From Streptomyces pactum (GTDB lineage: Bacteria > Actinomycetota > Actinomycetes > Streptomycetales > Streptomycetaceae): a DNA stretch of 64,000 nt. The first letter of the stretch is position 1. Every line of letters starts with the position of its first letter. Below the pieces are notes generated by a model. It was not told the origin of the DNA. It did no database searches and was given only the letters and a program-made list of their open reading frames with translations. Positions 40,113-58,699 of the stretch are shown here, piece by piece. The stretch covers positions 8,288,001 to 8,352,000 of the forward strand of contig NZ_CP019724.1 in the NCBI RefSeq assembly GCF_002005225.1. The letters run 5' to 3'. A program made the translations under genes and the position numbers.

Positions 40113-40211
40113 GCCGCGGCCCCGGCAGAAACGGTTCGGCCCGGCCGGGGGCGGACCGGCCGTCCAGGGGACACGGCCCGGACCGCAGGACGACGCAAGG
40201 AGGCGAACGCC

Positions 40212-41402
40212 ATGCACCACAGTGAGCCCGCACCCGCACCCGCACCCGCACCCGCACCCGAGCCCGCGCCCGCGCCCGCACCCGCACCCGCACCCGCACC
40301 CGAGCCCGCACCCGAGCCCGAGCCCGCACCCGCACCCGAGCCCGCACCCGAGCCCGCACCCGTGCCCGCACCCGTGCCCGCACCCGTGCCCGCGCCCGAG
40401 CCCGTGCCCGAGCCCGTGCCCGTGCCCGCGCCCGAGCCCGCACCCGAGCCCGTGCCCGTACCCGTGCGCAAGGGCGGCGGCCGCGTCACGGACGACATCG
40501 ACGCCCGCGACGCCGTCGGTGTCCTCGACACCCTGCGGCGCCTGGGCGCCCTGGGCGCCCTCGCCGTCACGCACGGCTCCGCCGTCCCGCCGCCCGTGCA
40601 CATTCCGCGTCCGGACAGCTCGTGGCTGCGGGTCCGCGAGGACCTCGCGGACCGCGGCGTCACGGTGGCGTACGCGACCTGGACCGAGTGGTTCCCCGCG
40701 GTGCTCACCACGCCGCGCCTCAAGCCCCTGCTCGGCGGGGACTGGAACCGCTACGCCGGGACCCACGACCCCGCCGTCCGCTGCCGGTTCGCCGCGTCCC
40801 GGCTGCTCGTCAAGTACACCGCGGCGGCCGCGCTCGGCATCGGGCCGGAGGACATCGACATCGCCTACCGGCTCGGTGGCCGCCCCTACCTGCGCGGCCT
40901 CGACCAGATCGAGGTGGGCCTGACGCACACCGGTGAGCTGATGGCCGTGGGGATCAGCCGGGTGGGCCGCATCGGCCTGGACGCCGAGTGCGCGGACCGG
41001 CGCTTCGACCTGGGCCTGATGCGCAACCGGATGTGCACCCCGGCCGAGGCCGCCGAACTGGACGCGCTGTCCCCGGACCAGCAGGCGGCGTGCGTGCTGC
41101 GGCTGTGGACGCTGAAGGAGGCGTACACCAAGGCGCTCGGGCAGGGCATGCGGCTCGCCTTCACCGAGTTCGGCTTCGGCCTCGCTCTCGGCGGCCTGCG
41201 CACCCCCGACGGCGCCGCCGCCCTCGGCGAGGAGTGGGCGTTCGCCACGCACCCGGTGCTCGGCCGCTACCTGGTCAGCGCGGCGTGCCACGACGCCGGA
41301 CTCGACCCGGCCGGGGACACCTCGGTCGGCACCATGCTGGACCGGCGGCTGCTCACGGCGATGACCCCGCCCGCGGACCAGGACCCGGCCGTCGACATCT
41401 GA
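40212..41402 (+). CDS. 4'-phosphopantetheinyl transferase, Sfp type, with Ala/Pro/Glu repeat N-terminus
   Basis: Residues from about 90 on form a Sfp-type transferase: RFAASRLLVKYTAAAALGIG, the Mg-binding VGRIGLDAECADR, and LWTLKEAYTKALGQGMRLAF. It would attach phosphopantetheine to the ACP at 45.3 kb. The first 85 or so residues are almost pure Ala-Pro and Glu-Pro dipeptides encoded by about forty hexanucleotide repeats. Start ATG 40212 has GGAGG upstream; a GTG near 40463, just after the repeat, would give a protein of normal size. Whether the tail is translated is uncertain, but the frame stays open throughout. Confidence 0.9.
   Translation: MHHSEPAPAPAPAPAPEPAPAPAPAPAPAPEPAPEPEPAPAPEPAPEPAPVPAPVPAPVPAPEPVPEPVPVPAPEPAPEPVPVPVRKGGGRVTDDIDARDAVGVLDTLRRLGALGALAVTHGSAVPPPVHIPRPDSSWLRVREDLADRGVTVAYATWTEWFPAVLTTPRLKPLLGGDWNRYAGTHDPAVRCRFAASRLLVKYTAAAALGIGPEDIDIAYRLGGRPYLRGLDQIEVGLTHTGELMAVGISRVGRIGLDAECADRRFDLGLMRNRMCTPAEAAELDALSPDQQAACVLRLWTLKEAYTKALGQGMRLAFTEFGFGLALGGLRTPDGAAALGEEWAFATHPVLGRYLVSAACHDAGLDPAGDTSVGTMLDRRLLTAMTPPADQDPAVDI
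40222..40470 (+). repeat. Hexanucleotide array (CCCGCA/CCCGAG) in the PPTase gene
   Basis: Roughly forty six-base units CCCGCA, CCCGAG, CCCGCG and CCCGTG. The period keeps the PPTase frame, encoding (Ala/Glu/Val)-Pro repeats. Confidence 0.95.
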
Positions 41403-42217: not shown

Positions 42218-43705
42218 ATGGATACCTTTGACGCGGACGTGATCATAGTAGGAGCAGGGCCCACCGGACTCATGCTCGCGGGCGAGTTGAGTCTCAACGG
42301 AGTCTCCGCCCTGGTCGTGGAACGGCTTGCCGAACCCATCAGGGAATCTCGCGCCCTCGGCTTCTCCGCGCGCACGATCGAGGAATTCGCGCAGCGCGGA
42401 CTTATTTCCCGGCTCGGTGACGTCGACGTCATTCCGTTCGGTCATTTCGGCGGTGTGCCGCTCGACTACCGGGTCCTTCCCAATGGTTCGTACGGCGCCC
42501 GCGGCATCCCCCAGTCGCGGACCGAGGCCATGCTCGCCGGCTGGATCGCGGAGCACGGCGTCGAGGTGCGCCGCGGCGTCGAGGTCACCGGCGTCGAGCA
42601 GGACGACGACGGGGCCGGCGTCCGCACAGCCACCGCGGACGGCACCCGCACCCTCCGTGCCCGCCACGTCGTGGGCTGCGACGGCGCCCGCAGCGTCGTC
42701 CGCACCAGCGCCGGGATCGACTTCCCCGGCACCGCGCCCACCGTCGAACTGCGCTTCGCCGACGTCACCGGCGTGCAACTGCGCCCCCGCTTCAGCGGCG
42801 AGCCGGTGCCCGGCGGCATGGTCATGGTGCTGCCGCTCGGCCCGGACCGCAGCCGCGTCATCTACTACGACCGCGCGCAGCCGATGCGCACCAGCCCGGA
42901 CCCGATCACCTTCGAGGAGGTCGCCGAGGCGTTCCAGCGGCTGTCCGGCGAGGACATCAGCGGTGCCACACCGCTGTGGGTCTCCTCCACCACCGACGTC
43001 AGCCGCCAGGCCGCCCAGTACCGCAAGGGCCGCGTCTTCGTCGCCGGCGACGCCGCCCACATCCACCTGCCGATCGGCGCCCAGGGCATGAGCGCCGGCA
43101 TCCAGGACGCCGTCAACCTCGGCTGGAAGCTCGCCCTCGACATCAAGGGCCAAGCCCCCCAGGGGCTGCTCGACACCTACCACGCCGAGCGTCACCCGGT
43201 CGGCGCCCGCATCCTCGCCAACACCCTCGCCCAGCGCACCCTCTACCTCGGCGGTGACGAAACCGGGCCGCTGCGCCAGGTGTTCACCGAGCTGGTGCGG
43301 CACGAGGAGGTGCAGCGCCACCTGGTGGGCATGGTCACCGGGCTCGACATCCGCCACGACGTCGGCTGCGAGGGCCACCCGCTGCTCGGCCGCCGCCTGG
43401 AGGACAAGCAGGTCACCCGCGACGGCGTGAAGCAGAGCGTCTTGAGCCTCCTGGAGCCGGGACGCGGCCTGCTGCTCGACCTCGCCGGCAGCGCCGAGCT
43501 GCGCGCCGCGGGCCGGGGCTGGTCCGACCGGGTCGACACCGTCACCGTGCAGGGCACCGACGGCGGCTGGGGCCTGGGCGGCATCCTCGTCCGCCCCGAC
43601 GGCTACGTCGCCTGGGCGGGCGCCCCGGGGGACGGCCCCGCCGCCGGCGCCACGGGCATGCCGCTCACCGACGCGCTCGCCCGCTGGTTCGGCCCCGCCC
43701 GCTGA
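42218..43705 (+). CDS. FAD-dependent aromatic polyketide monooxygenase (AlpK-position)
   Basis: 495 residues of the PgaE/RdmE/JadH-type class. The dinucleotide motif is VIIVGAGPTGLMLAGELS, the DG motif is VVGCDGARSVVR and the FAD-ribityl motif is VFVAGDAAHIHLPIGAQG. The C-terminal thioredoxin-like segment ends near VRPDGYVAWAG. These enzymes hydroxylate angucyclinone rings with NAD(P)H and O2. It stands directly before the AlpJ/JadG-type ring-cleavage oxygenase, the place AlpK holds in kinamycin clusters as I remember them, and AlpK/AlpJ act together in B-ring contraction. Assignment to that role is by synteny. Confidence 0.9.
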   Translation: MDTFDADVIIVGAGPTGLMLAGELSLNGVSALVVERLAEPIRESRALGFSARTIEEFAQRGLISRLGDVDVIPFGHFGGVPLDYRVLPNGSYGARGIPQSRTEAMLAGWIAEHGVEVRRGVEVTGVEQDDDGAGVRTATADGTRTLRARHVVGCDGARSVVRTSAGIDFPGTAPTVELRFADVTGVQLRPRFSGEPVPGGMVMVLPLGPDRSRVIYYDRAQPMRTSPDPITFEEVAEAFQRLSGEDISGATPLWVSSTTDVSRQAAQYRKGRVFVAGDAAHIHLPIGAQGMSAGIQDAVNLGWKLALDIKGQAPQGLLDTYHAERHPVGARILANTLAQRTLYLGGDETGPLRQVFTELVRHEEVQRHLVGMVTGLDIRHDVGCEGHPLLGRRLEDKQVTRDGVKQSVLSLLEPGRGLLLDLAGSAELRAAGRGWSDRVDTVTVQGTDGGWGLGGILVRPDGYVAWAGAPGDGPAAGATGMPLTDALARWFGPAR

Positions 43706-43764
43706 CCAAGGGCCCGGCCCGGCCGCACGCCCACCACCGAGGACTTCGAGGAAGCGAGAAGACC

Positions 43765-44460
43765 ATGCCGATCATCTGTGCCGAGGACAACTACCTGACC
43801 GTCCTCAACCTGTTCACCACCGACACCCCCGAGCACCAGGAGCAACTGCTCACCGAGATGGGGAAGATCGTCGACGCGGCCGCCTACGAGGGATGGATCT
43901 CCTCCACCGTGCACGCCGGGCAGGACGTCCCCGGGACCGCCAACCTCATCCAGTGGCGCAGCGGCGAGGATTTGGAAAAGCGTTACGCCGGTGAGGAGTT
44001 CAAGCACCGCACGCTGCCCGTCTTCCGCGAGATCACCACGGCCATCCGGCTGCTGCAGAACGAGATCGTCTTCTCCCAGACCCACCCCTCGCTCGAAGGG
44101 CGCGTCCAGGTCTCGCCGGACCGTGACGACTACACGGCCATCGAGGTCCACCGGGTCGGCGAGGCCGACCAGGCCGAACTGGTCAAGCTCCTGGGCGAGG
44201 GCCAGGACTGGCTCGTGAACGTCCCCGGCTACCGCTCGCACAGCGTCTTCAAGGGCCTGCGCGCCATGTTCGTCGAGGGCGCCTTCGCCGTCGTCTACTC
44301 GCAGTGGGACAGCAAGGAGAGCTACGAGGCCTTCCGCGACCTGCCGCACGCGCGCAAGCCCAGGCCCCGCCGCACCAACGACGAGCGCATCGCCGAGCTG
44401 AGGACCGAGTACGACGCGAACACCTACCGCGTCGTGCACACGCGCGCCGCGGGCGAGTAA
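43765..44460 (+). CDS. Angucycline B-ring-cleaving oxygenase, AlpJ/JadG/GilOII-like
   Basis: This 231-residue protein has two ABM-type ferredoxin-like domains. The first includes YLTVLNLFTTDTPEHQEQLL and DAAAYEGWISSTVHAG; the second includes DYTAIEVHRVGEADQAELV and NVPGYRSHSVFKGLRAMFVE. AlpJ/JadG/GilOII enzymes open the angucycline B ring, the step that leads to benzofluorenes such as kinamycin or to jadomycin and gilvocarcin. ATG 43765 has GAGGAAGCG upstream. It forms a unit with the preceding FAD monooxygenase. This gene is the main evidence that the pathway goes beyond a plain angucycline. Confidence 0.92.
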   Translation: MPIICAEDNYLTVLNLFTTDTPEHQEQLLTEMGKIVDAAAYEGWISSTVHAGQDVPGTANLIQWRSGEDLEKRYAGEEFKHRTLPVFREITTAIRLLQNEIVFSQTHPSLEGRVQVSPDRDDYTAIEVHRVGEADQAELVKLLGEGQDWLVNVPGYRSHSVFKGLRAMFVEGAFAVVYSQWDSKESYEAFRDLPHARKPRPRRTNDERIAELRTEYDANTYRVVHTRAAGE

Positions 44461-44862: not shown

Positions 44863-45192
44863 ATGCACAGCACGCTGATCGTGGCCCGTATGGCGCCCGG
44901 TGCGGGTGCGGACGTCGCCAAGCTGTTCGCCGAGTTCGACGCGACGGACATGCCGCACCGCATGGGCACCCGGCGGCGCCAGTTGTTCGCCTTCAACGGC
45001 CTGTACTTCCACCTGCAGGACTTCGACGAGGACAACGGCGGCGAGCTGATCCAGGGCGCCAAGGACGACCCGCGCTTCGTGCGGATCAGCGACGACCTCG
45101 CACCGTTCATCGCCCCCTACGACCCGGCGACCTGGCGCTCCCCGGCCGACGCCATGGCACAGCGCTTCTACCGGTGGGAGGCGTCCGCCTGA
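44863..45192 (+). CDS. TcmI/JadI-type polyketide cyclase
   Basis: The 109-residue protein starts HSTLIVARMAPGAGADVAKL and continues FDATDMPHRMGTRRRQLFAF and NGLYFHLQDFDEDNG, the compact dimeric fold of TcmI-family cyclases. It should close later rings (third/fourth) of the polyketide. AAGGAGCG precedes ATG 44863. In related clusters this gene sits immediately before KS-alpha; here the next gene is the ACP. Confidence 0.93.
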   Translation: MHSTLIVARMAPGAGADVAKLFAEFDATDMPHRMGTRRRQLFAFNGLYFHLQDFDEDNGGELIQGAKDDPRFVRISDDLAPFIAPYDPATWRSPADAMAQRFYRWEASA

Positions 45193-45287
45193 GCGGACGG
45201 CGTGCCGTCCACGGCGGACCGAGCCCGCGGCCCCGCCACAAACGATCAGCCTGGGCGCAACCGCCCCGAGAACCGAAGGAAGTACCC
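45193..45287. other. Cyclase-ACP junction where KS-alpha and KS-beta are missing
   Basis: Only 95 bases separate the cyclase stop and ACP start. In angucycline clusters the two ketosynthase genes (about 2.5 kb) stand here. I see no recognisable remnant of either gene; the last bases carry a normal AAGGAAG ribosome site for the ACP. Confidence 0.85.
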
Positions 45288-45576: not shown

Positions 45577-46362
45577 ATGTCCGACACCACCCGCAGGGTC
45601 GCCCTCGTCACCGGCGCGACCAGCGGCATCGGCCTGGAGACCGCCCGCCTGCTGGCGCGGCAGGGGCACCGGGTCTTCATCGGCGCACGCGACGCGGACA
45701 ACGTCGCCCACACCGCCAAGGCACTGCGCGAGGAGGGCCTGGACGTCGACGGCCGGCCGCTCGACGTCCGCGACGCCGCCTCCGTCAAGGAGTTCGTCGA
45801 CGGCGCCGTCGCCGCCTTCGGCACCGTCGACGTACTCGTCAACAACGCCGGACGCTCCGGCGGCGGCCCCACCGCGGACCTCACCGACGCGCTGTGGGAC
45901 GACGTCATCGACACCAACCTCAACAGCGTCTTCCGGATGACCCGCGAGGTCCTCACCACCGGCGGCATGCGCGCCAAGGACCGCGGCCGGATCATCAACA
46001 TCGCCTCCACCGCCGGCAAGCAGGGCGTCGTCCTCGGCGCCCCCTACTCGGCCTCCAAACACGGCGTCGTCGGCTTCACCAAGGCCCTCGGCAACGAACT
46101 GGCACCGACCGGCATCACCGTCAACGCCGTCTGCCCCGGCTACGTCGAGACGCCGATGGCCCAGCGGGTACGGCAGGGCTACGCCGCGGCCTACGACACG
46201 AGCGAGGACGAGATCCTCAAGAAGTTCCAGGCCAAGATCCCCCTGGGCCGCTACTCCACCCCCCAGGAGGTCGCGGGCCTGGTCGGCTACCTCGCGTCCG
46301 ACACCGCCGCCTCCATCACCTCCCAGGCCCTCAACGTCTGCGGTGGCCTCGGCAACTTCTAG
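45577..46362 (+). CDS. Type II PKS ketoreductase (C-9 ketoreductase type)
   Basis: 261 residues, ActIII-like SDR: ALVTGATSGIGLETARLLAR, DVLVNNAGRSGGGPTADLTD, IINIASTAGKQGVVLGAPYS and ASKHGVVGFTKALGNELAPT. The catalytic Ser-Tyr-Lys are in place. It reduces the nascent polyketide, usually at C-9, before first-ring closure. ATG 45577 has GAGAGGAG upstream. Neighbours on both sides are core PKS genes. Confidence 0.96.
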   Translation: MSDTTRRVALVTGATSGIGLETARLLARQGHRVFIGARDADNVAHTAKALREEGLDVDGRPLDVRDAASVKEFVDGAVAAFGTVDVLVNNAGRSGGGPTADLTDALWDDVIDTNLNSVFRMTREVLTTGGMRAKDRGRIINIASTAGKQGVVLGAPYSASKHGVVGFTKALGNELAPTGITVNAVCPGYVETPMAQRVRQGYAAAYDTSEDEILKKFQAKIPLGRYSTPQEVAGLVGYLASDTAASITSQALNVCGGLGNF

Positions 46363-46436
46363 CACCGCCCGCCCCCCCCCGGGGGAGTGTTGCTCCCCGC
46401 CGCCCGCACAGCCCGTACCACCGAGGAGAAGCCGTC

Positions 46437-47381
46437 ATGACGACTCGTGAGGTCGAGCACGAGATCACCATCAGCGCGCCCGCCGCCGCCGTCTACCGCC
46501 TCCTCGCCGAGGTGCCCAACTGGCCGCGGATCTTCCCGCCCACCATCCACGTCGACCGCGAGGAGAGCGAGGGGAACCAGGAGCGCATCCGCATCTGGGC
46601 CACCGCCAACGGCGAGCCCAAGACCTGGACCTCGCGCCGCACCCTCGACCCCGGGGCCCTGCGCATCACCTTCCGCCAGGAAGTGCCGGCACCACCGGTC
46701 GCGGCGATGGGCGGCACCTGGATCGTCGAACCCCTCGACGAGGGCACCTGCCGCGTCCGGCTCGCGCACGACTACCGGGCCCTCGGCGACGACCCGCACG
46801 ACCTGCTGTGGATCGAGCGGGCCGTGGACAAGAACAGCACCGGCGAACTCGCCGCCCTCAAGGAGAACGTCGAGCAGGCGCACGCCGCCGAGACACAGGA
46901 ACTGACCTTCTCCTTCACCGACACGGTGACGATCGACGGCTCGGCCAAGGACGCCTTCGACTTCGTCAACGAGGCCGGGCTGTGGCCCGAGCGGCTCCCG
47001 CACGTGGCCCGCGTCCGCTTCACCGAGGACACCCCCGGCCTGCAGGAGCTGGAGATGGACACCCGCGCCCAGGACGGCTCCACACACACCACCAAGTCCT
47101 ACCGGGTCGTCCTGGGCCACCACCGCATCGCCTACAAGCAGGTCACCCTGCCGGCACTGATGACCCTGCACACCGGCGTGTGGACCTTCCAGGAGAGCGA
47201 CGAGGCGGGCACGACGGCCAGCTCCCAGCACACCGTCACCCTCAACACCGCCAACATCGCCCGCGTCCTGGGCCCTAAGGCCACCGTCGCCGACGCCCGC
47301 GCCTACGTGCACGGCGCGCTGAGCACCAACAGCCTCGCCACCCTCGGCCACGCCAAGGACTACGCCCAGCGGAACCGCTGA
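46437..47381 (+). CDS. Bifunctional aromatase/cyclase (two START-like domains), intact
   Basis: 314 residues: first domain EHEITISAPAAAVYRLLAEV, WPRIFPPTIHVDREESEG and FRQEVPAPPVAAMGGTW; second domain beginning around TFSFTDTVTIDGSAKDAFDF. This is the ActVII/JadD-type first-ring aromatase/cyclase. GAGGAGAAG lies before ATG 46437. It is the intact paralogue of the broken gene at 37.2 kb; their gene ends align closely, so duplication or parallel recruitment occurred. The stop is one base before the next ATG, implying coupling. Confidence 0.95.
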   Translation: MTTREVEHEITISAPAAAVYRLLAEVPNWPRIFPPTIHVDREESEGNQERIRIWATANGEPKTWTSRRTLDPGALRITFRQEVPAPPVAAMGGTWIVEPLDEGTCRVRLAHDYRALGDDPHDLLWIERAVDKNSTGELAALKENVEQAHAAETQELTFSFTDTVTIDGSAKDAFDFVNEAGLWPERLPHVARVRFTEDTPGLQELEMDTRAQDGSTHTTKSYRVVLGHHRIAYKQVTLPALMTLHTGVWTFQESDEAGTTASSQHTVTLNTANIARVLGPKATVADARAYVHGALSTNSLATLGHAKDYAQRNR

Positions 47382-47382: not shown

Positions 47383-48888
47383 ATGGCCGGCGCCCCGCAC
47401 CCGCACGCCCCCACGCCGCGCACCTCGCCCGCGAAGACGGCCGACACCCAGGTGATCGTCGTCGGTGCGGGCCCGGCCGGCCTGCTCCTCGCCGGTGAAC
47501 TGGCCCTGCGCGGCATCCAGGTGACCCTCCTCGAGCGGCGCCACGGCCCCACCACCGAGTCCCGCGCCTCCACGCTGCACGCCCGCACCATGGAACTGCT
47601 CGACAGCCGCGGCCTGCTCGCGGACCTCGGCAGCCCGCCGTGCGAGCCGCGCGGCCACTTCGGCGGCATCCCCCTGGACCTGACCCTGCCCGGCCCCTAC
47701 CCCGGGCAGTGGAAGGTCCCCCAGACCAGGACCGAGTCCGTCCTGGAGGAGTGGGCCCTGGGGCTCGGCGCCGACCTCAGGTGCGGCCACACCCTGCACG
47801 CCGTGGCAGACCGCGGCACCCACGTCGAGGCCGCCGCCACCAGCCGCCACGGACAACACGTCACACTGCGCGCCGCCCACCTCGTCGCCTGCGACGGCCA
47901 GGACTCCACGGTGCGCCGCCTGCTCGGCGCCGACTTCCCCGGCACCCCGGCCACCCGGGAACTGCTGCGCGCCGACGTCGAGGGCATCGACATCCCCGAC
48001 CGGCGCTTCGAACGGCTCCCCGGCGGCCTCGCCGTCGCCGCCCGCAACCCGGCGGGCGTGACCCGGGTCATGGTGCACGAGTTCGGCGCCGCGGTCCGCG
48101 AACGCGCCGGCGACCCGCACTTCGACGAGATCGCCGCCGCCTGGAAGCGCGTCACCGGCGAGGACATCACCGGCGGCACCCCGCTGTGGGTCAACCACTT
48201 CGACGACGAGAACCGGCGCCTGGCCCGTTACCGGCACGGCCGCGTCCTGTTCGCCGGGGACGCCGCCCACCGCCAGATGCCCATCGGCGGCCAGGCCCTC
48301 AACCTCGGCCTCCAGGACGCCTACAACCTCGGCTGGAAGCTCGCCGCCGCCGTCGACGGCACCGCACCCGCCGGACTCCTGGACACCTACGGCACCGAAC
48401 GCGCCGCCGTCGGCGCCGCCGTCCTCGGCAACATCCGCGCCCAGGCCCTGCTGCTGCTGGGCGGCCCCGAGACCGAGCCGCTGCGCACCGTCCTGGCCGA
48501 ACTCGTCGCCCACGACGACGTACGCCGCCACCTCGCCGCGATGATCAGCGGCCTCGACGTGCGCTACGACGTCGGCGGCCCCGAGCACCCGCTGCGCGGC
48601 GCCCGCCTGCCGCACCTGCGGCTGCGCACCGGCGCAAGCGTCTGCAGCACGGCCGAACTGCTGCGCTCCGGGCGCGGGCTGCTCCTGGGGCTGGGCGCCC
48701 CGCCGCCGCCGGCCGGCACCGCCCTGGCCGACCGTATCGACACGGTCACCGCGCGCCCGGCCCCGGGCTCACCGCTCGCGGACACGCCCGCCGTCCTGGT
48801 CCGGCCCGACGGCCACGTCGTCTGGACCGGCGGCAGGGACGGCGACGGGCTCGCCCAGGCGGTCGCACGGTGGTTCGGTCCCCCCTGA
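47383..48888 (+). CDS. FAD-dependent aromatic polyketide monooxygenase, second
   Basis: 501 residues with VIVVGAGPAGLLLAGELALR, LVACDGQDSTVRRLL and VLFAGDAAHRQMPIGGQALN. The N-terminal 20 residues before the Rossmann motif are longer than in its neighbours and Pro/Thr-rich. It starts one base after the aromatase stop with no strong ribosome site, so translational coupling is likely. It belongs to the angucycline hydroxylase class (JadF/JadH/AlpF/AlpG group); the exact position attacked cannot be told. It is preceded and followed by core and tailoring genes in one operon. Confidence 0.9.
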   Translation: MAGAPHPHAPTPRTSPAKTADTQVIVVGAGPAGLLLAGELALRGIQVTLLERRHGPTTESRASTLHARTMELLDSRGLLADLGSPPCEPRGHFGGIPLDLTLPGPYPGQWKVPQTRTESVLEEWALGLGADLRCGHTLHAVADRGTHVEAAATSRHGQHVTLRAAHLVACDGQDSTVRRLLGADFPGTPATRELLRADVEGIDIPDRRFERLPGGLAVAARNPAGVTRVMVHEFGAAVRERAGDPHFDEIAAAWKRVTGEDITGGTPLWVNHFDDENRRLARYRHGRVLFAGDAAHRQMPIGGQALNLGLQDAYNLGWKLAAAVDGTAPAGLLDTYGTERAAVGAAVLGNIRAQALLLLGGPETEPLRTVLAELVAHDDVRRHLAAMISGLDVRYDVGGPEHPLRGARLPHLRLRTGASVCSTAELLRSGRGLLLGLGAPPPPAGTALADRIDTVTARPAPGSPLADTPAVLVRPDGHVVWTGGRDGDGLAQAVARWFGPP

Positions 48889-48987
48889 GAAGCCGCTGCC
48901 GGCCCGCGCGGCGGGCCGCCCCGGCACCGCCAGCCCCCGGCCCGTACCGAGCACGGACCACTGATGACTGAGAGGGATCCCACGACC

Positions 48988-50580
48988 ATGCAGGACACCA
49001 CGATGGACGCCGACGTCATCGTCGTAGGCGCAGGCCCGACCGGACTGATGCTCGCGGGCGAACTCCGCCTGGGCGGAGCCGAAGTGATCGTGCTCGACAA
49101 ACTGGCCGAGCCCACCGGCCAGTCCCGGGGCCTGGGCTTCACCGCCCGCGCCATGGAGGTCTTCGACCAGCGCGGACTCCTGCCCCGCTTCGGGCAGGGC
49201 GAGAGCCTGGAGGTCAGCCCCGTCGGCCACTTCGGCGGAGTCCAGTTCGACTTCACCGCCCTGGAAGGCGCCCACTTCGGCGCCCGCGGCATCCCGCAGA
49301 GCCAGACCGAGGCGGTCCTCGCCGCGTGGGCCGCCGACCTCGGCGCCGACATCCGCCGCGGCTGCGAGTTGCTCGCCCTCGCCGACGGCTTCCTCGACGG
49401 CGACCACGTCGAGGTCACCGTGGCGACCACGGACGGCGTACGGCGGCTGCGCGCCTCCCACCTGGTGGGCTGCGACGGCGGCAAGAGCACGGTGCGCAAG
49501 CTCGCCGGCATCGGCTTCCCCGGCACCGAGGCGACCCGCGCGATGTTCCTCGCCGACGTCACCGGCTGCGACCTCAAGCCCCGCTACCTCGGCGAGACCC
49601 TCCCCAACGGCATGGTGATGGCCGCCCCCCTCAAGGAGGGCGTGCACCGCGTCATCGTCTGCCCGCACGGCGCCGCCGCCCGCAGCGCCGACGACACCGT
49701 CACCTTCGAAGAGGTCGCCAAGGCCTGGGAGCACATCACCGGCGAGGACATCAGCGGCGGCGGCGCCGAGTGGGTCAGCTTCTTCAGCGACGCCACCCGC
49801 CAGGCCGCCGAGTACCGGCGCGGCCGGGTGCTGCTCGCCGGGGACGCCGCCCACATCCACCTGCCCGCCGGCGGGCAGGGCCTGAGCACCGGCGTGCAGG
49901 ACGCCGCCAACCTCGGCTGGAAACTCGCCGCCGTCGTCACCGGCCGGGCCGGCGAGGACCTCCTGGCCACCTACCACGCCGAGCGTCACCCGGTGGGCCG
50001 CCGCCTGCTGATGAACACCCGCGCCCAGGGCATGGTCTTCCTCGGCGGCGACCAGGCCGAGCCGCTGCGCCGGATCCTCACCGAACTCACCGGCTACGAC
50101 ACGGTCCGCCGCCACCTCGCGGGCATCGTCTCCCACCTCGACATCCGCTACGACATCACCGCCACCGCCACCGCCACCGGCGCCGATGCCGCCACCGGCG
50201 CCGATGCCGATGCCGATGCCGGTGCCGGTGCCGGTGCCGGTGCCGGTGCCGGCCATCCGCTGCTCGGCCGCCGCCTGGGCAAGCTCCCGCTGACCGGACC
50301 CGGCGGCGAGAGCGACACCTTCCGGCTGCTGCACGCCGGACGCGGCGTCCTGCTCGACCTCGCCGACGACCCCGGCGTGCGCGCGGCCGCCGCAGCCTGG
50401 ACCGGCCGCGTCGACGTCGTGACGGCCACCGCCCGCACGGCCGACCGCGGCGCCGTGTTCGCGGGCGCCGAGGCGGTGCTCATCCGCCCCGACGGCCACG
50501 TCGCCTGGACCGGCACCGGCGGCGCCGCCGGCCTGGGGACCGCCCTCGCCCGCTGGTTCGGCACGCCCGCCCGGGCATGA
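48988..50580 (+). CDS. FAD-dependent aromatic polyketide monooxygenase, third, with repeat insertion
   Basis: About 530 residues: VIVVGAGPTGLMLAGELRLG, LVGCDGGKSTVRKLAGIGF and VLLAGDAAHIHLPAGGQGLS. ATG 48988 is chosen because AGAGGG lies upstream; an ATG at 48964 is also in frame but lacks a ribosome site. Near the boundary between the FAD/substrate part and the C-terminal domain, residues (Ala/Thr/Gly/Asp)n are inserted before GHPLLGRR, where the first FAD enzyme has only a short linker. The insert is encoded by GCCACCGGCGCCGAT-type repeats at 50155-50252. Probable angucycline hydroxylase. Confidence 0.9.
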   Translation: MQDTTMDADVIVVGAGPTGLMLAGELRLGGAEVIVLDKLAEPTGQSRGLGFTARAMEVFDQRGLLPRFGQGESLEVSPVGHFGGVQFDFTALEGAHFGARGIPQSQTEAVLAAWAADLGADIRRGCELLALADGFLDGDHVEVTVATTDGVRRLRASHLVGCDGGKSTVRKLAGIGFPGTEATRAMFLADVTGCDLKPRYLGETLPNGMVMAAPLKEGVHRVIVCPHGAAARSADDTVTFEEVAKAWEHITGEDISGGGAEWVSFFSDATRQAAEYRRGRVLLAGDAAHIHLPAGGQGLSTGVQDAANLGWKLAAVVTGRAGEDLLATYHAERHPVGRRLLMNTRAQGMVFLGGDQAEPLRRILTELTGYDTVRRHLAGIVSHLDIRYDITATATATGADAATGADADADAGAGAGAGAGAGHPLLGRRLGKLPLTGPGGESDTFRLLHAGRGVLLDLADDPGVRAAAAAWTGRVDVVTATARTADRGAVFAGAEAVLIRPDGHVAWTGTGGAAGLGTALARWFGTPARA

Positions 50581-50642: not shown

Positions 50643-51725
50643 CTACCGCGGGCTCGCCTCCACGACCGAGATCGCACCCGGCGTCTGCACGATGCGCTCC
50701 AGCCGGAAGCCCGCCCGGGCCAGCAGCTTTCCGTACTGGGCCCCCGTGCGCTCCTTGCCGCCCACGAGCAGCATCAGCCACAGGTCGACCAGCTTCGAGG
50801 GGTGGGCGGCGTTCGGCTTGTCCGGCACGACCATCTCCATCAGCAGCAGCCGCCCGCCCGGCCGCATCGCGGCCCGCACGTTGCGCAGGATCTCCAGGGC
50901 CTGCTCCTCGGGCCAGTCGTGCACGATGTGCTTGAGGACGTAGGCGTCCCCGCCCCCGGGCACCGGCCCGAACAGATCGGCGGCCACCACCCGACAGCGG
51001 TCGGCGACCCCCTGCTCGGCCAGGTAGTCCGCCGCCCCGTTCGCACCCGCCCGGGGATCGGAGAGGATCCCCCGCACGCCCGGCGACTTCCGCAGGATCC
51101 CGGCGAGCAGCTCGCCGCGGCCCGCGCAGAAGTCGACGACCGTGCCGAACCGCGAGAAGTCGTACGCCGCCAGGACCGGCTCGCTCTCGGTGGCGGACAT
51201 GGCGCCCATGCCCTTCATGAACACCTCGCCGTACTCCGGCTCGGCCTCCAGGAACTCGAAGGCCGTCATGCCGCGCAGCTTGGGCAGGCTCGGCTCGCCG
51301 GTACGCACCGCGTCCACGAAGTGCGACCAGTCCTCCCAGTGGACCGGGTGGCCCATCAGCACCGCGATGCCGCGCATCGACACCGGCGCGTCCTCGAGCA
51401 GCGCGGCCCCCATCGCGGACAGGGCGAAGTCGCCGTTCCCGCGTTCGGCGAAGACGCCGTTCGAGGCGAGCAGCCGCATCAGCCGGTGCAGCGTCTCCGG
51501 GTGGGCACCGACACGCTCGGCGAGCCGTTCGGCGGGCAGCGGACCGTCCCTCAGCGCCTCGGCGACGCGCAGCTCCGCGGCGGCGTAGACGGCCTGGCTG
51601 AGCATGGCGCCCTGGACCATCTCGAGCAGCGAGAACGGTGCGGGGGCCAGCCTCCGTGCCAGCCGCTGCAGACCGGTACGCACGCCTTCGACGGCCCGCA
51701 CGACGCGGGCGGGCGGCAGGGGCAT
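50643..51725 (-). CDS. O-methyltransferase-like protein (AlpH-like)
   Basis: 360 residues with the class I plant-type O-methyltransferase fold: an N-terminal dimerisation part (SLLEMVQGAMLSQAVYAAAE, LRVAEALRDGPLPAERLAER) and a Rossmann domain with DAYVLKHIVHDWPEEQALEI. The SAM glycine motif reads VVDFCAGRGELLAG, unlike the usual DVGGGxG. ATG 51725 has GGAGGA upstream. AlpH in kinamycin clusters holds this place beside the diazo cassette; my recollection is that AlpH acts in attaching the hydrazine unit to the polyketide without using SAM. The altered motif fits that idea but does not prove it; ordinary O-methylation remains possible. Confidence 0.85.
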   Translation of the reverse strand: MPLPPARVVRAVEGVRTGLQRLARRLAPAPFSLLEMVQGAMLSQAVYAAAELRVAEALRDGPLPAERLAERVGAHPETLHRLMRLLASNGVFAERGNGDFALSAMGAALLEDAPVSMRGIAVLMGHPVHWEDWSHFVDAVRTGEPSLPKLRGMTAFEFLEAEPEYGEVFMKGMGAMSATESEPVLAAYDFSRFGTVVDFCAGRGELLAGILRKSPGVRGILSDPRAGANGAADYLAEQGVADRCRVVAADLFGPVPGGGDAYVLKHIVHDWPEEQALEILRNVRAAMRPGGRLLLMEMVVPDKPNAAHPSKLVDLWLMLLVGGKERTGAQYGKLLARAGFRLERIVQTPGAISVVEASPR

Positions 51726-52326: not shown

Positions 52327-54413
52327 AGGAACCCGCGGGGCGCCACGAATCCCGCCGCGCCGTCAACGCCAGAAAGCGGATCAGCCGCCGTCCCAGCAGG
52401 CTCGGCACCCCCGCCGGCAGCACCGCCAAACCGGACCGCGTCGGTGACCTCGACGCCGGATTCCCCGGACTGCTGGGGCACGTGTGGCGGCGGGCACGGG
52501 AGGCCGAGGACCTGCGCACCACTGTCGACGTGCTGCTCACCCTCGACGGGCACGTCCCCGGCGACATCCAGTTGCGGGCCCTGAACTCCACGGAGCAGGC
52601 CGCCCTGACCGCCCTGTGCGGCCTGAGCTGGCGCGATCCGGACGACGCGGACGGCGGCGTCACCGACGCGGCGGCCCCCGCGCCGGCGGACCCCGACGCG
52701 GCGGGCCCCAGGCCGGCGGACCCCGACGCGGCGGACCCCGCGCCGGCGGACCCCGACGCGGCGGACCCCGGGCCGGCGGACCCCGACGCGGCGGGCCCCA
52801 GGCCGGCGGAGCCCAGGCCGGCCCCCGGCACGCCCCAGCCCCCCGCCTTCCTCGGCGAGATCGGCCTCAGCACCACGGGCCGCATCGCCCTGCGCGTCCC
52901 CGGCGCCCGCCCCCTCGACCCCCGCACCCTGGTCGGCGGTGTGCGCCGCGTGCCGTACGACCGCGCCGCTCTCGCCGCCTACCGGCGGGAACTCGACCAC
53001 GCCCGGGAACGGAACGCCGCCCGCGCCGCCGACTGCCGCGCCTGGCTCGCCGGGCAGGGACCCCAGGGCCGCCGCGCGCTGCTCTCCCAGGCCCGCGAGG
53101 CGGCCGTGCGCACCGCCCCGTTCGTCCTCTACCAGGAGGACACGCAGTACACGAACTTCCGCGACCACAACACCCTGACCGGCAAGACCCTGTGGCCCGG
53201 CCACCCGCACTGCGCCCTCAGCGCGCTCGAGGACCTGCCGTTCGACCTGTGGTCGGACCAGGACACCCAGGTACTGGTCTGCCTCACCCTGCTCATCCGC
53301 TCGGCCGGCTTCGGACGGATCGAGGAGGCCAACGGCACCCAGCTCACCGTCGACCACGTCGCCCACACGCTGGAGCGGGTACGCCGCGCCTACCGTGCCG
53401 TACCCGGCGTCGAACCGGTGCCCGCCGCCGCCTCGCACCGCGTCGCCGACCTCGACCGGCTCGCCGTCGCACTGCGCGAGCGCCGCCGGGAGGTGGGCCG
53501 GCACGCCCAGTTGTACCGCGAGATCCACGGGCCGCTGATGCACAAGGTGGAACGGGTGGCCGCCGCTGCCGGCCCCACCGCCCGGGCCCGCCAGGACGCC
53601 GTCGCCGAACGCCTGCGCACCAGGCTGGCGCTGGCCGGCGCCACGCTCGCCGACCTCGGCCGGACCCTGGCCGCCGCGCCCGGCTGGCTCGCCGAACCCC
53701 ACGGCGCCTTCGGCACCGGCCTGGAGTCGCTGGTGCACGAGACCGTGGCCGCGACCGCCGACGTCTTCGGCGCCGACTTCGCGATGAGCCGCGGCATGCG
53801 CTCGCTGCCCGACCTGGTACGGGCCCTGCGCGGTGAGAACTGGGCGGCGATCTGCGACTGGGACATCACGCACTTCTTCTGCTGCGTGGTGCCGCGGCCC
53901 GAAGCGGCCGCCCACTTCGGCGGCTCCCAAACCGCGCTCGCCGACGCGGCCTGGGCGATGTCCTCGCGCATGCAGTACAACTCCTGGCACTTCGTCGCCG
54001 GCAACCTGCCGCGAAAGCCCGAGGTGCTGGCCCGCGACCACTTCGTGCCGCCCGTCATCCCGGACCTCGCCTACTTCTCGGACCAGCACCACCACGGGCA
54101 CGTCAGCAACAACGTGCGCTTCTCCATCCGTTCCCCGCAGGCCGTCGAGGTCGACGGACGCCGCTTCGACGGCTTCATGGACCTCAGACTGCTGCGCTGC
54201 GCCGGCGACCCGTTCGGCGAACAGGACCTGCTCGCCGCCCACCAGGTGTCCGGATTCATCGCCCGCGCCACCTCGCTCGCCGCCTCGCTCGCCGCCGCCG
54301 GCACCACACTGGAGGTCACCGCGTTCGACTCCGGCTGGCACTGGACGGCCGTCACCGGCCAGGGGCCCGCGGCACCCGGAGCCCTGGCCGGCCAGATCCG
54401 CCGAGCGTCGTGA
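52323..54413 (+). CDS. Large unrecognised protein of the diazo cassette (KinJ-position)
   Basis: 696 residues with no family I can name. The N-terminus is basic (residues 1-40). A four-copy ten-residue repeat (PADPDAAGPR type) fills about 120-165. Conserved-looking blocks follow: QYTNFRDHNTLTGKTLWPGH, WAAICDWDITHFFCCVV and DLAYFSDQHHHGHVSNNVRF. The clustered His, Asp and Cys residues could hold a metal. It is coupled to the ferredoxin by ATGA overlap and followed by the amidase. Position and partner suggest the redox enzyme that makes the N-N bond or prepares its substrate; this is inference, as no motif proves it. No frameshift is seen. Confidence 0.8.
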   Translation: MKEPAGRHESRRAVNARKRISRRPSRLGTPAGSTAKPDRVGDLDAGFPGLLGHVWRRAREAEDLRTTVDVLLTLDGHVPGDIQLRALNSTEQAALTALCGLSWRDPDDADGGVTDAAAPAPADPDAAGPRPADPDAADPAPADPDAADPGPADPDAAGPRPAEPRPAPGTPQPPAFLGEIGLSTTGRIALRVPGARPLDPRTLVGGVRRVPYDRAALAAYRRELDHARERNAARAADCRAWLAGQGPQGRRALLSQAREAAVRTAPFVLYQEDTQYTNFRDHNTLTGKTLWPGHPHCALSALEDLPFDLWSDQDTQVLVCLTLLIRSAGFGRIEEANGTQLTVDHVAHTLERVRRAYRAVPGVEPVPAAASHRVADLDRLAVALRERRREVGRHAQLYREIHGPLMHKVERVAAAAGPTARARQDAVAERLRTRLALAGATLADLGRTLAAAPGWLAEPHGAFGTGLESLVHETVAATADVFGADFAMSRGMRSLPDLVRALRGENWAAICDWDITHFFCCVVPRPEAAAHFGGSQTALADAAWAMSSRMQYNSWHFVAGNLPRKPEVLARDHFVPPVIPDLAYFSDQHHHGHVSNNVRFSIRSPQAVEVDGRRFDGFMDLRLLRCAGDPFGEQDLLAAHQVSGFIARATSLAASLAAAGTTLEVTAFDSGWHWTAVTGQGPAAPGALAGQIRRAS

Positions 54414-54424
54414 AAGGAGAGGCG

Positions 54425-55813
54425 ATGACCGCCCGCGGCGTCAGCCACACCGGACAACTCCTGCGACGGGGCGAGCTGTCCGCCCTCGAACACACCACCG
54501 CCGTCCTGGACGCCATCCGCGAACAGGACACCCTCGACGCCTACGTGTCCGTCGCGGGCGAGGAGGCACTGCGCGCGGCCGAACGCGCGGACGCCCGGAT
54601 CCGCAAACTGGGCGCCGACGCCTGGCGGACCATGCCGCTGCTCGGCGTCACCGTCTCCGTCAAGGACCTGCTGCAGACCCACGACCTGCCCACCGCACGC
54701 GGCTCGCTGCTGCCCAACGACCGGCCCCGCCGGGACACGCCCGCCGTGGCCCGGCTGCGCGCCGCCGGGGCCGTCGTCGTCGGCAAGACCGCCACCTCCG
54801 AATACGGCTGGAGCGCCTCGACCGTCAGCCGGGCCGCCCCGCCCACCCGCAACCCCTACGACCCGCGCCTGAGCGCGGGCGGCTCCAGCGGCGGCGCCGC
54901 GGCCGCGGTGGCCACGGGCCTGTGCGACGGCGCCCTGGGCACCGACGGATCCGGATCGATCCGGATCCCCGCCGCGTTCTGCGGCGTCGTCGGCTACAAA
55001 CCGTCCCTGGGCCGCATCCCGTACGTCCCCAACAGCGCCGACCGGCTCGCCCACCAGGGCCCCCTCGCCCGTACCGTCGCCGACGCCGCGCTGCTCGCCA
55101 CGGTCATGGCGGGCCCGCACCCGGCCGACCCCGACTCCGGCCTCGGCTCCCTGGACGCGCCGCGCACCAAACGGGTACTGAGGATCGGCTGGATCGAGTA
55201 CGAGGGCACCGCCGACGAGGTCCGCCACGTCACCGAACCCGCCCGCCTGGCCCTGCGGGCACAGGGCCACCTGGTCGAGGACGTCGAGGTGCGCTGCGCC
55301 CGCCTGTACCCCGCCCTCGTCGACCTCCTCGCCGCCTTCGAGGCGGCCGGGGCCCGCCCCGAGGACGACGAACGGGCCGACCCCGGCCGCCTGGAGGTGA
55401 TCCGGCACGGGCGCACGCTCGGCGGCGCCGACGTGATCCGGGCCGAGGAGGTCCGCCAGGGCCTGCGCGCCACCCTGCGCACCGTCATGGACCACTACGA
55501 CGTCCTCGCCATGGCCACCGTGCCCGTCGAGCCGTTCGCCACCGGCGCCTTCGCCCCGCCCTGGGCGGCCGACGCCCGGGACCTGCAGTGGCTGGCCTGG
55601 GCGCCCGCCTCGTACCCCTTCAACATGACCGGCCAGCCGGCCCTGTCGCTGCCCGCCGGCCTCACCCGCTCCGGCCTGCCGGTGGGCCTGCAACTGGTCG
55701 GGCCCGTCGGCGCCGACGACCTGGTCCTCCGGCTCGCCGGGCACCTGGAGTCGGACCTCGGCACACCGGTGCCGCCCCACCCGCGCGTTCTGCAGCCCGC
55801 GGCCGCCCGGTAA
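54425..55813 (+). CDS. Amidase-signature enzyme of the diazo cassette (KinK/FzmO-like)
   Basis: 462 residues. The Ser-Ser-Lys triad is present: GVTVSVKDLLQTHDLP (Lys), LSAGGSSGGAAAAVATGL (Ser) and GTDGSGSIRIPAAF (nucleophile Ser). Start ATG 54425 lies behind AAAGGAG, 11 bases after the preceding stop. In fosfazinomycin and kinamycin pathways, homologous amidases cleave or transfer the hydrazide from a glutamyl-hydrazine carrier. Gene order here (amidase, ligase, lyase, acetyltransferase) matches that cassette, so the role is assigned by family plus synteny. Confidence 0.93.
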   Translation: MTARGVSHTGQLLRRGELSALEHTTAVLDAIREQDTLDAYVSVAGEEALRAAERADARIRKLGADAWRTMPLLGVTVSVKDLLQTHDLPTARGSLLPNDRPRRDTPAVARLRAAGAVVVGKTATSEYGWSASTVSRAAPPTRNPYDPRLSAGGSSGGAAAAVATGLCDGALGTDGSGSIRIPAAFCGVVGYKPSLGRIPYVPNSADRLAHQGPLARTVADAALLATVMAGPHPADPDSGLGSLDAPRTKRVLRIGWIEYEGTADEVRHVTEPARLALRAQGHLVEDVEVRCARLYPALVDLLAAFEAAGARPEDDERADPGRLEVIRHGRTLGGADVIRAEEVRQGLRATLRTVMDHYDVLAMATVPVEPFATGAFAPPWAADARDLQWLAWAPASYPFNMTGQPALSLPAGLTRSGLPVGLQLVGPVGADDLVLRLAGHLESDLGTPVPPHPRVLQPAAAR

Positions 55814-57412: not shown

Positions 57413-58699
57413 ATGCTTGCCCGATACACGCTGCCCGAGATGGCCCACCTCTTCACCGACCGCTCCCGCTACGCCACCTGGGTGCGGGTGGAGATCCTCG
57501 CCTCCCAGGCGCAGGCCGCCCTGGGCCGCGTACCGCACGAGGCGGTCGAGGACATGCGCCGCGCCCGCGTCCCGGACCCCGAGCGGGTCGCCGAGATCGA
57601 ACGGGAACGCGACCACGAGGTGCTCTCCTTCCTCGCCGCCTACTGCGAGGACATCCCCGCCTCCTCCGCGTGCTGGGTGCACCACGGCATGACCAGCTAC
57701 GACCTCGTCGACACCGCCCTGGGCCACACCCTGGCCCGCGCCACCGACCTGCTCACCGGCGCCACCCGGCGGCTGCGCCGGGTGCTGACCGAACGGGCCC
57801 TGGAGCACTGGGACACCGTCATGGTGGGCCGCACCCACGGCGTGCACGCCGAGCCCACCACCTTCGGGCACAAACTCGCCGGCCACGCCTTCGCCGTGGA
57901 CCGCTCGCTCGGCCGGCTCGCCGCCGCCCGCGAGGCCGTCGCCGTCGGCACCGTCTCCGGCTCCGTCGGCACCTACGCGCTGATCGACCCGCGCGTCGAG
58001 GAGCACGTCCTGGCCGCCCTGGGCCTGGCCGCCGAGCCCGCGCCCAGCCAGGTCGTCGCCCGGGACCGGCACGCCCAGCTCCTGCAGGCCGTGGCCACAC
58101 TGGGCGCCTGCGTGGAACAGATCGCCCTGGAACTGCGGCTGCTGCAGCGCACCGAGGTCCGCGAGGTCGAGGAACGGCGCACCGGCGCCTACCAGGGCTC
58201 CAGCGCCATGCCCCACAAACGCAACCCCACCACGAGCGAACGCCTGTGCGGGCTGGCCCGCCTGCTGCGCGGCTACGCCGACACCGCGGTGGAGAACGTG
58301 GCGCTCTGGCACGAACGCGACCTCGCCCACCAGTGCGTGGAGCGGGTGATCCTGCCCGACAGCCTCTGCGCCGGCCACTTCCAGGTCACCAGGGCCGCCG
58401 ACCTGGTGGCCTCGCTCACCGTCGACGCCGACCGGATGCGCGCACACATCGACCAGACCGACGGCCTCGTCCACAGCTCCGCGGTCCTCGCCGACCTCCT
58501 CGGCGAGGGCATGGAGCGCGAACACGCCTACCGCAGCGTGCAGGCCGCGGCCGGCCACACCCTGGCGACGGGCGAGCACTTCGGCGCGGCCCTGGCCAAG
58601 GAGGGCATCGGCCCGGCCCCCCTCGGTGCCGAGCGCTTCCTCGTCCACCACGATGTGATCCGCACCCGTCTGGAGAAACTGCATGAACTGGAAGACTGA
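57413..58699 (+). CDS. Adenylosuccinate lyase-like enzyme (hydrazinosuccinate lyase, KinM/FzmR-like)
   Basis: 428 residues of the fumarase/aspartase superfamily. Diagnostic blocks are HHGMTSYDLVDTALGHTL, MVGRTHGVHAEPTTFGHKLA and the signature GSSAMPHKRNPTTSERL. In fosfazinomycin and kinamycin pathways the homologue splits N-amino-aspartate (hydrazinosuccinate) into fumarate and hydrazine. The chain length is shorter than housekeeping PurB by a few dozen residues. The gene has a weak ribosome site and overlaps the following acetyltransferase by 17 bases. A housekeeping role is unlikely in this context. Confidence 0.92.
   Translation: MLARYTLPEMAHLFTDRSRYATWVRVEILASQAQAALGRVPHEAVEDMRRARVPDPERVAEIERERDHEVLSFLAAYCEDIPASSACWVHHGMTSYDLVDTALGHTLARATDLLTGATRRLRRVLTERALEHWDTVMVGRTHGVHAEPTTFGHKLAGHAFAVDRSLGRLAAAREAVAVGTVSGSVGTYALIDPRVEEHVLAALGLAAEPAPSQVVARDRHAQLLQAVATLGACVEQIALELRLLQRTEVREVEERRTGAYQGSSAMPHKRNPTTSERLCGLARLLRGYADTAVENVALWHERDLAHQCVERVILPDSLCAGHFQVTRAADLVASLTVDADRMRAHIDQTDGLVHSSAVLADLLGEGMEREHAYRSVQAAAGHTLATGEHFGAALAKEGIGPAPLGAERFLVHHDVIRTRLEKLHELED

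What the first reader, a model, noticed from the sequence alone, without database searches (positions are those of the whole stretch)
45193..45287. Ketosynthase pair missing from an otherwise complete angucycline core
The order cyclase - ACP - ketoreductase - aromatase is seen, but KS-alpha and KS-beta, which in angucycline clusters stand between cyclase and ACP, are absent; only 95 bases remain with no visible remnant. No other frame in the window shows type II ketosynthase motifs. Either the genes have moved (perhaps past the right edge), a ketosynthase pair elsewhere serves in trans, or they were lost and the cluster is silent. An assembly collapse between two similar clusters is a further option.
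Basis: partly seen in the sequence, partly recalled or inferred. Interest (0 to 1): 0.85.

Follow-up and report, generated by a model that had tools for sequence, protein, structure and literature searches.

The report
Kinamycin-type cluster with swapped, distant ketosynthases
The antibiotic-type gene cluster lacks its core chain-building enzymes at the usual place because, in the ancestor of about a dozen Streptomyces species, they were deleted and their job appears to have passed to a foreign enzyme pair encoded about 67,000 bases away at the far end of the same cluster.

Summary
In detail: 95 bp (45193-45287) separate cyclase and ACP and no type II ketosynthase (KS) gene lies in the window. 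It is not an assembly fault: 12 of 12 KS-less cores (10 loci, G122, own) share this junction and form one clade (100/98.5), sister to a locus with the KS pair in place; their last ~50 bp before the ACP match that locus's KSbeta-ACP spacer, a deletion scar. A KS pair exists past the right edge, 66.7 kb from the ACP (window frame 111985-114494), at the end of a syntenic ~80-kb block, with no ACP found beside it. Its KSalpha is 93-98% identical in the 11 other KS-less genomes; the best match in 5 KS-bearing controls is 75%. It is not the relocated original: trees place it with stand-alone TE-KSalpha-KSbeta-ACP clusters and reject union with in-place angucycline KSs (p 9e-8, 3e-5). Best reading: a foreign KS pair displaced the native one while ACP, ketoreductase, aromatase and cyclase stayed. 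Auricin (PMC10409956) is the experimental precedent: a distant ACP-less KS pair is essential, the in-place pair inactive. Here the old pair is gone. New variant of a known kind; function inferred, not shown.

The parts
44863..45192 (+). polyketide cyclase (PF04673), gene left of the junction
45193..45287 (+). junction from which the KSalpha-KSbeta pair is missing; its last ~50 bp match the old KSbeta-ACP spacer. The KS pair thought to serve this core lies beyond the right edge of the window: in the window frame continued, thioesterase frame 110976-111974, KSalpha 111985-113250 (421 aa; L026:7985-9250), KSbeta 113247-114494 (415 aa; L026:9247-10494), all + strand
   Evidence: junction; KS pair; thioesterase: and Pfam on its counterpart in L135
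45288..45563 (+). acyl carrier protein, 91 aa
45577..46362 (+). ketoreductase
45894..47381 (+). open frame holding the aromatase/cyclase (true start later, about 46.4 kb, judged from relatives)
42218..43705 (+). FAD monooxygenase upstream of the core
43765..44460 (+). ABM-domain protein; position and domain fit a B-ring-opening oxygenase of the AlpJ/JadG kind (name from recall)
40212..41402 (+). 4'-phosphopantetheinyl transferase domain protein, candidate activator of the ACP
47383..48888 (+). FAD monooxygenase
48964..50580 (+). FAD monooxygenase
50643..51725 (-). AlpH-like protein (diazo-installing enzyme of kinamycin)
54410..55813 (+). amidase
57413..58699 (+). lyase family protein
58683..59087 (+). 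GNAT acetyltransferase

Best explanation
This is a kinamycin-type angucycline cluster whose minimal polyketide synthase is split and hybrid. Shown by sequence: the KS pair that stood between cyclase and ACP was deleted once, in the common ancestor of this clade, leaving the KSbeta-ACP spacer; a KSalpha-KSbeta pair of a different type II PKS lineage, with a thioesterase but without an ACP, ends the same ~80-kb block and occurs together with the KS-less core. Inferred: that remote pair condenses malonyl units on the core's own ACP (45288-45563), activated by the phosphopantetheinyl transferase at 40212; the core's ketoreductase, aromatase and cyclase then make the angucyclinone, which the neighbouring oxygenases and the AlpH-like enzyme tailor. 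The likely order (inferred) is gain of the foreign pair, then loss of the redundant in-place pair.
For: Same junction in 10 of 32 loci, plus G122 and own; these 12 form one clade on 8 core genes, 100/98.5. Scar: 12 of 12 junctions score best against L046's spacer among 22 KS-bearing spacers, 23-38, highest mononucleotide shuffle 16-22 of 300 each. KSalpha 93-98% identical in 10 of 10 KS-less genomes, at most 75% in 5 of 5 KS-bearing controls; G122 97%. In 392 genus genomes KSalpha of 97% or more occurs in 3 (G000, G175, G122), the same 3 that hold the KS-less cyclase-ACP junction (G175 repeats G006). Order largely kept from w34774 to KSbeta in G004 and G005; contig ends abut in that order in G006 and G122. 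No ACP near the remote pair in 10 of 12 KS-less genomes looked at, nor near the second pair of G014/G015, with three ACP queries, while the donor ACP query finds one in 12 of 12 stand-alone clusters, its own included. KS phylogeny: AU p 8.8e-8 (KSalpha), 2.7e-5 (KSbeta) against union with in-place KSs. KSalpha catalytic motifs intact; mean dN/dS 0.13 and 0.23. Precedent: Aur2AB in auricin.
Against: No product, expression or mutant data. Only 3 of 12 genomes show core and pair on one contig or scaffold at 67-77 kb; 2 more by abutting contig ends; 6 are on unlinked contigs; in S. mexicanus the pair is at the other end of a scaffold with N gaps. In G010 no KSbeta was found beside KSalpha. Synteny is not perfect: G004 lacks w97330 and w101615-w106997, and two single genes (w31571, w174580) have matches in G005 beyond KSbeta. 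A smaller core tree (4 genes, 34 rows) did not recover the KS-less loci as one clade: L071 joined L046 weakly (84/78), and L047/L048, for which a wrong aromatase match was probably taken, sat apart. The ACP shows no extra divergence that would mark adaptation to a new partner. CreE and CreD, which stand beside the pair in relatives, are deleted here, so part of the cluster may be decaying. Four further KS-type frames of this genome (369168, 500982, 8455766 with its TIR copy, 5953582) were not examined as possible partners.
Confidence: 0.85

Rival explanations
1. The core is served in trans by the other type II KS pair of the genome (2987917/2989233, spore-pigment type by recall, with its own cyclase), and the pair at 112 kb makes something else.
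For: That pair is present without stops and has a homologous cyclase nearby (55%).
Against: A KSalpha of the same tree group is also held by KS-bearing genomes (G014 and G015, 2 of 5 controls), so its presence does not track loss of the in-place pair, while the 112-kb pair does. The 112-kb pair has no ACP of its own nearby.
Confidence: 0.05
2. The cluster is dead or silent; the KS pair at 112 kb belongs to the adjoining NRPS-like cluster.
For: NRPS-like frames follow KSbeta in this genome (read from the translation; no family search was run on them); CreE and CreD beside the pair are reduced to remnants.
Against: The large frames after KSbeta (w118752, w132725) have no counterpart in the ~10 kb (G004) and ~25 kb (G005) that I held beyond KSbeta. 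KS genes are under purifying selection in the clade; cyclase, ACP, ketoreductase and aromatase are 82-97% identical to the window's across it, where present.
Confidence: 0.08
3. The original angucycline KS pair was simply moved within the cluster.
For: The pair is in the same conserved block.
Against: Sister locus L046 has cyclase 90% and ketoreductase 88% identical to the window, but its KSalpha is only 70% and KSbeta 63% identical to the remote pair. AU test of remote KSalphas plus L046 as one clade: p 4e-56.
Confidence: 0.02
4. Assembly collapse between two similar clusters removed 2.5 kb.
For: The region lies in a terminal inverted repeat, where assemblers can err.
Against: The same junction, with differing spacer sequence and length (77-206 bp), is in 11 other genome assemblies.
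Confidence: 0.01

Closest known systems
Auricin aur1/aur2 system of Streptomyces lavendulae CCM 3239 (PMC10409956; I read the abstract, sections 19 and 20 and the discussion)
   Same: A distant KSalpha-KSbeta pair without ACP, of another clade (the authors: aureolic acid clade), is essential and works with the angucycline-type ACP in the core; with that ACP and its PPTase it gave rabelomycin in S. coelicolor M1146.
   Different: In auricin the in-place pair (aur1DE) is still present but inactive and the product is griseusin-like. Here the in-place pair is deleted with a scar, the core is kinamycin-type, and the state is shared by 12 genomes, taken from collections that hold one genome per species. 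That the remote pair belongs to the same clade as Aur2AB was not tested.
Kinamycin alp cluster of S. ambofaciens (PMC7343708, passages; AlpH: PMC10477347, passages)
   Same: Cyclase-ACP-KR core, AlpH-like enzyme, location in the terminal inverted repeats.
   Different: In alpIABCD the minimal PKS genes alpA, alpB, alpC stand together between alpI and alpD; here the KS pair is absent there and lies 67 kb away. (That alpI is the cyclase and alpD the ketoreductase is from recall.)
S. coelicoflavus NBRC 15399 cluster 't2pks-iii' (PMC5932044, passages and rows of Table 5)
   Same: Lists a KS pair of 421 and 415 aa with no ACP, product unknown; the sizes match the pair found here in the same strain, so I take them to be the same genes.
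   Different: In the passages seen, the paper does not link that pair to an ACP or to an angucycline core; I did not match its ORF numbers to coordinates.
Daunorubicin dps genes (PMC6560455, one passage; separation of dpsG from dpsA/dpsB is from recall)
   Same: ACP not next to the KS pair.
   Different: From recall the distance is only several kb and no KS replacement is involved.

Membership tests
Angucycline type II PKS cluster, kinamycin type | cyclase-KSalpha-KSbeta-ACP-KR order as in alpIABCD | tested here: not met
   KS pair absent between cyclase and ACP; alpIABCD with alpABC as minimal PKS from PMC7343708
Angucycline type II PKS cluster, kinamycin type | AlpH-like diazo-installing enzyme | tested here: met
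   window 50643-51725 vs PDB 8h3t AlpH, E 8.7e-153, 512 bits; next best MmcR 252 bits
Angucycline type II PKS cluster, kinamycin type | nitrous-acid genes CreE/CreD (Alp2F/Alp2G) | tested here: not met
   deleted to remnants in this genome; best other CreE relative 37%; CreE-like frame without stops on the KS contig in G001, G004, G006, G009, G122; CreD identity of the neighbouring lyase by PDB 5xny, E 1e-167; the CreE name rests on its place beside CreD and PF13454 and on recall
Angucycline type II PKS cluster, kinamycin type | B-ring-opening AlpJ-family oxygenase | tested here: inconclusive
   ABM domain at 43765-44460; no AlpJ sequence compared
Auricin-type split minimal PKS | KSalpha-KSbeta pair far from the core and without its own ACP | tested here: met
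   66.7 kb away; no ACP found near it
Auricin-type split minimal PKS | remote pair from another clade than the angucycline KSs | tested here: met
Auricin-type split minimal PKS | remote pair belongs to the aureolic acid (MtmP/MtmK) clade | not tested
Auricin-type split minimal PKS | in-place angucycline KS pair still present (inactive) | tested here: not met
   absent in 12 of 12
Auricin-type split minimal PKS | remote pair genetically required for the product | not testable with these tools
   needs knockout

The most novel reading that the evidence does not exclude
Aromatic polyketide clusters repeatedly exchange their ketosynthase engine by one route: a foreign KS pair enters without its ACP, both pairs coexist (clusters like G014, G015, G053, G377, G243, G071, G111), the native pair decays (auricin) and is finally deleted (this clade; perhaps independently G356), while ACP, ketoreductase, aromatase and cyclase persist. 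KS-CLF and ACP would then be separable evolutionary modules, and this clade a natural, 12-genome set of non-cognate minimal PKSs.
Probability: 0.5. Interest if true: 0.7.

Novelty: new variant of a known kind. Interest (0 to 1): 0.58.

Why it matters
How a KS-CLF recognises its ACP in type II systems is treated as still to be worked out in PMC7949117 (passages seen), and engineered hybrids depend on it. Here evolution appears to have made and kept a hybrid: a KS-CLF of one lineage with the ACP of another, with a KS-bearing sister (L046) as control. The case also warns that genome mining can list one pathway as separate or incomplete clusters, as seems to have happened for S. coelicoflavus (PMC5932044), and that a missing minimal-PKS gene does not mean a dead cluster.

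Tried and rejected
Relocation of the native pair: rejected by AU tests. Coding remnant of KS in the junction: a permissive tblastn (E up to 10) of KS proteins from KS-bearing loci gave, in the part of the output I printed (first 3,000 characters), only scattered short matches on both strands, best E 0.003 in the repeat-rich spacer of L045. Rapid ACP adaptation: not seen; ACP/(cyclase+KR) divergence ratio median 1.59 for KS-less vs L046 (12 pairs), 1.49 among KS-bearing (28), 1.80 within KS-less (66). Change of chain length: not indicated; the chain-length-factor gate region reads GGFEFGQREL in 11 of 11 remote KSbetas, and begins GGFEFGQ in 20 of 22 in-place ones, L046 and L069 differing by one residue (meaning of the gate from recall). 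Single origin with the second pair of G014/G015: neither shown nor rejected (p 0.21). Arrangement unique to this clade: rejected; of 102 ACP loci 95 have a KS next to them and 7 do not, of which 4 (G282, G404, G356, G352) are outside the clade. KS pair on the opposite chromosome arm in S. mexicanus: seen on the scaffold but not relied on, because of N gaps. Literature: in the listings (two returned nothing) and the passages I opened I saw no description of this cluster as a split PKS; the library holds open-licence papers only. The protein search gave only generic names among the 120 rows shown. Stretches around the KS-type frames at 369168 and 500982 were fetched but not analysed.

Rows dropped: the KSalpha tree kept hits over 55% identity and left out 2 duplicates (74 rows); the AU run used 59 of those 74; the KSbeta tree used 59 rows, hits of 52% or more less 3 duplicates; the 8-gene core tree used 20 of the 34 loci, among them 8 of 22 KS-bearing ones; controls were 5 of 22 KS-bearing loci. 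Stop signs, where a tblastn match had any, were taken out of rows before trees were built.

Full report
Observation. A PF00109 scan of the whole genome gave 86 matches; the only one inside the window is in a 2511-aa frame, so a type I KS domain, at window ~3.3-4.1 kb. The window is G000:C1:8288001-8352000 of an 8.55-Mb single contig, and from about 23-24 kb onward it lies in a terminal inverted repeat (TIR) reaching about 239 kb from the left end; I compared the two copies base by base only from 160 kb inward.

Where the ketosynthases are. The scan showed a KSalpha-KSbeta pair at 8399985 and 8401310, i.e. window frame 111985-114494, 66.7 kb from the ACP, with its TIR copy at 150063/148777. KSalpha best matches the actinorhodin KS and KSbeta the actinorhodin chain length factor among solved structures. 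A thioesterase frame ends 10 bp before KSalpha; NRPS-like frames follow KSbeta, judged from the translation only. No ACP was found near the pair: three ACP queries found none in stretches of 12-60 kb around it in 10 of the 12 KS-less genomes, nor near the second pair of G014 and G015, while the donor ACP query found an ACP in 12 of 12 stand-alone clusters, its own included. G008 and G010 were not in that test.

Same junction elsewhere. A scan of genome contigs with the ACP gave 32 loci. In 10 of 32 cyclase and ACP are adjacent with no KS; in 22 of 32 the KS pair stands between them. G122 adds another KS-less core. With the window that is 12 genomes, junction lengths 77-206 bp. An assembly collapse is therefore excluded. 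On 8 core genes (2527 columns, 20 loci) the 12 KS-less loci form one clade, support 100/98.5, with KS-bearing L046 as sister. A smaller 4-gene tree had placed L071 with L046 (84/78) and set L047/L048 apart, probably because a wrong aromatase match was taken for them.

A scar. The ~50 bp before the ACP in all 12 KS-less junctions match the KSbeta-ACP spacer of L046, better than any of the other 21 KS-bearing spacers and better than 300 mononucleotide shuffles each (scores 23-38; highest shuffle 16-22). So a KS pair once stood here and was cut out between the cyclase and the old spacer.

Co-inheritance and synteny. The remote KSalpha has a 93-98% identical counterpart in 10 of 10 KS-less genomes (in G010 over residues 1-406) and none above 75% in 5 of 5 KS-bearing controls, chosen from 22; G122 has one of 97%. 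In 392 genomes of the genus KSalpha of 97% or more is in 3 (G000, G175, G122) and these are the 3 with the KS-less cyclase-ACP junction; G175 has the same contig coordinates as G006 and is taken as the same genome. Nineteen other genomes of the 392 hold a KSalpha of 82-92%. Gene order from the regulator at 34774 to KSbeta at 114494 is largely kept in G004 and G005; G004 lacks w97330 and w101615-w106997 and has only a weak match for w74311. Beyond KSbeta (about 10 kb held in G004, 25 kb in G005) no further gene of my ORF list matched, save w31571 and w174580 in G005 (the list was made by a codon-composition rule and is not complete). Distances ACP to KSalpha are 66.7, 77.0 and 71.0 kb. In G006 and G122 core and KS pair are on separate contigs whose ends abut in this order; w104638 and w106065 were not seen in G122. 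Six others are unlinked because contigs are short. In S. mexicanus (G007) the pair is near the other end of a scaffold with N gaps. In G010 no KSbeta was found next to KSalpha.

Origin of the pair. KSalpha tree (74 rows): the 12 remote KSalphas group with KSs of stand-alone TE-KSalpha-KSbeta-ACP clusters G144, G189, G176 (95), within a 33-row clade (98) separate from the 22 in-place angucycline KSalphas. Holding remote and in-place KSalphas together is rejected, p 8.8e-8; remote plus L046, p 4e-56 (59 rows). KSbeta agrees: p 2.7e-5 (59 rows). The ACPs of these three stand-alone clusters are only 48-55% identical to the window ACP, whereas L046's ACP is 79%. So the KS pair was replaced and the ACP was not. 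Both KS genes look functional: no stops, KSalpha catalytic motifs present (S. mexicanus has GCAS for GCTS, cysteine kept), mean dN/dS 0.13 for 12 KSalphas and 0.23 for 11 KSbetas.

How rare. Of 102 angucycline-type ACP loci (all rows, the own TIR copy counted once), 95 have a KS within 3.5 kb upstream and 7 do not: own, G175, G122, and G282, G404, G356, G352 (loci L149-L177 reach only 1.5 kb upstream). In G282 and G404 a KSalpha (74-75%) lies 13 and 31 kb away, in G356 one of 86% 31 kb away; in G352 none reached 1e-100 and the ACP is near a contig end. Seven genomes carry an in-place pair and a second pair of the remote kind with no ACP found next to it: G014, G015, G053, G377, G243, G071, G111 (in G111 only about 1 kb beyond that KSbeta was held). 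Of the 19 genomes with 82-92% KSalphas, 12 have an ACP right after KSbeta, 6 (G053, G377, G243, G071, G111 and G356) do not, and in G324 no KSbeta was found.

Mechanism and precedent. In auricin the distant, ACP-less aur2AB is essential, aur1DE in the core is dispensable and gave no or only traces of product when expressed, and aur2AB works with lanC or aur1F ACP to give rabelomycin; aur1L PPTase with aur1M raises it about 31-fold (PMC10409956, sections 19-21 read). The authors call it, to their knowledge, the first example of two clusters interacting in this way. The present cluster fits the same logic with the old pair gone: remote KS pair plus core ACP (PPTase gene at 40212), then KR, aromatase, cyclase, oxygenases and the AlpH-like enzyme. 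This step is inference; no product is known to me.

State of the diazo branch. In G004, G006 and G122 a CreE-like and a CreD-like gene stand between a condensation-domain gene and the thioesterase-KS pair (CreD by PDB 5xny, E 1e-167). In this genome they are reduced to remnants (110641-111025), the next best CreD-like copy (56%, at 1.35 Mb) has 2 in-frame stops, and the best CreE relative is 37%. Of 12 genomes searched for the CreE-like protein, G003 and G005 had no match at 1e-40. So this strain may make a non-diazo benzofluorene, or get nitrite elsewhere (inference).

Verdict. Real, explained, not an artefact: a kinamycin-type cluster whose native ketosynthases were displaced by a distant foreign pair. 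New variant of the auricin-type split PKS.

Noticed in passing
window frame 110641-111025 (L026); S. coelicoflavus L108: CreE/CreD-like genes beside the remote KS pair are deleted to remnants in this genome; S. coelicoflavus has a different deletion at the same place (breakpoints differ), suggesting repeated loss of the nitrous-acid step.
   Followed up: partly
window 30001-43993 vs left arm 218801-232793: The two TIR copies agree with no mismatch but 9 gap openings over 14 kb, so small indels or base-calling errors may shift frames between copies.
   Followed up: partly
window frame 90827-91489 and 101615-106997 (L025, L026): A sulfotransferase-domain gene, ABC transporter genes, a PAPS-reductase-domain gene and an EF-Tu-type GTPase (fits sulfate adenylyltransferase subunits, from recall) inside the block suggest a sulfated product; the genes at 101615-106997 were not found in G004.
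   Followed up: no
L047 and L126-L128 (S. mexicanus, G007): The core here looks rearranged: the genes w47383-w58683, including the AlpH-like gene, amidase and lyase, and the aromatase were not found after the ketoreductase; later cluster genes follow in inverted order. An N gap lies right after the ketoreductase, so scaffolding may be the cause.
   Followed up: partly
G356:C1:468973-502743 (L182, L183, L184): A second kind of KS-less core: ACP-KR-aromatase with no KS or cyclase found in 27 kb upstream and a remote-type KS pair (86% KSalpha) 31 kb away; possibly an independent swap.
   Followed up: partly
L113/L114 (G014) and L115 (G015): KS-bearing kinamycin-like clusters with a second thioesterase-KSalpha-KSbeta set without ACP 12-17 kb away, on a long branch, catalytic motifs kept with variation.
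   Followed up: partly
window frame 108719-110539 (L026:4719-6539): A gene with an AMP-binding C-terminal domain followed by a condensation domain is conserved near the KS pair; role unknown.
   Followed up: no
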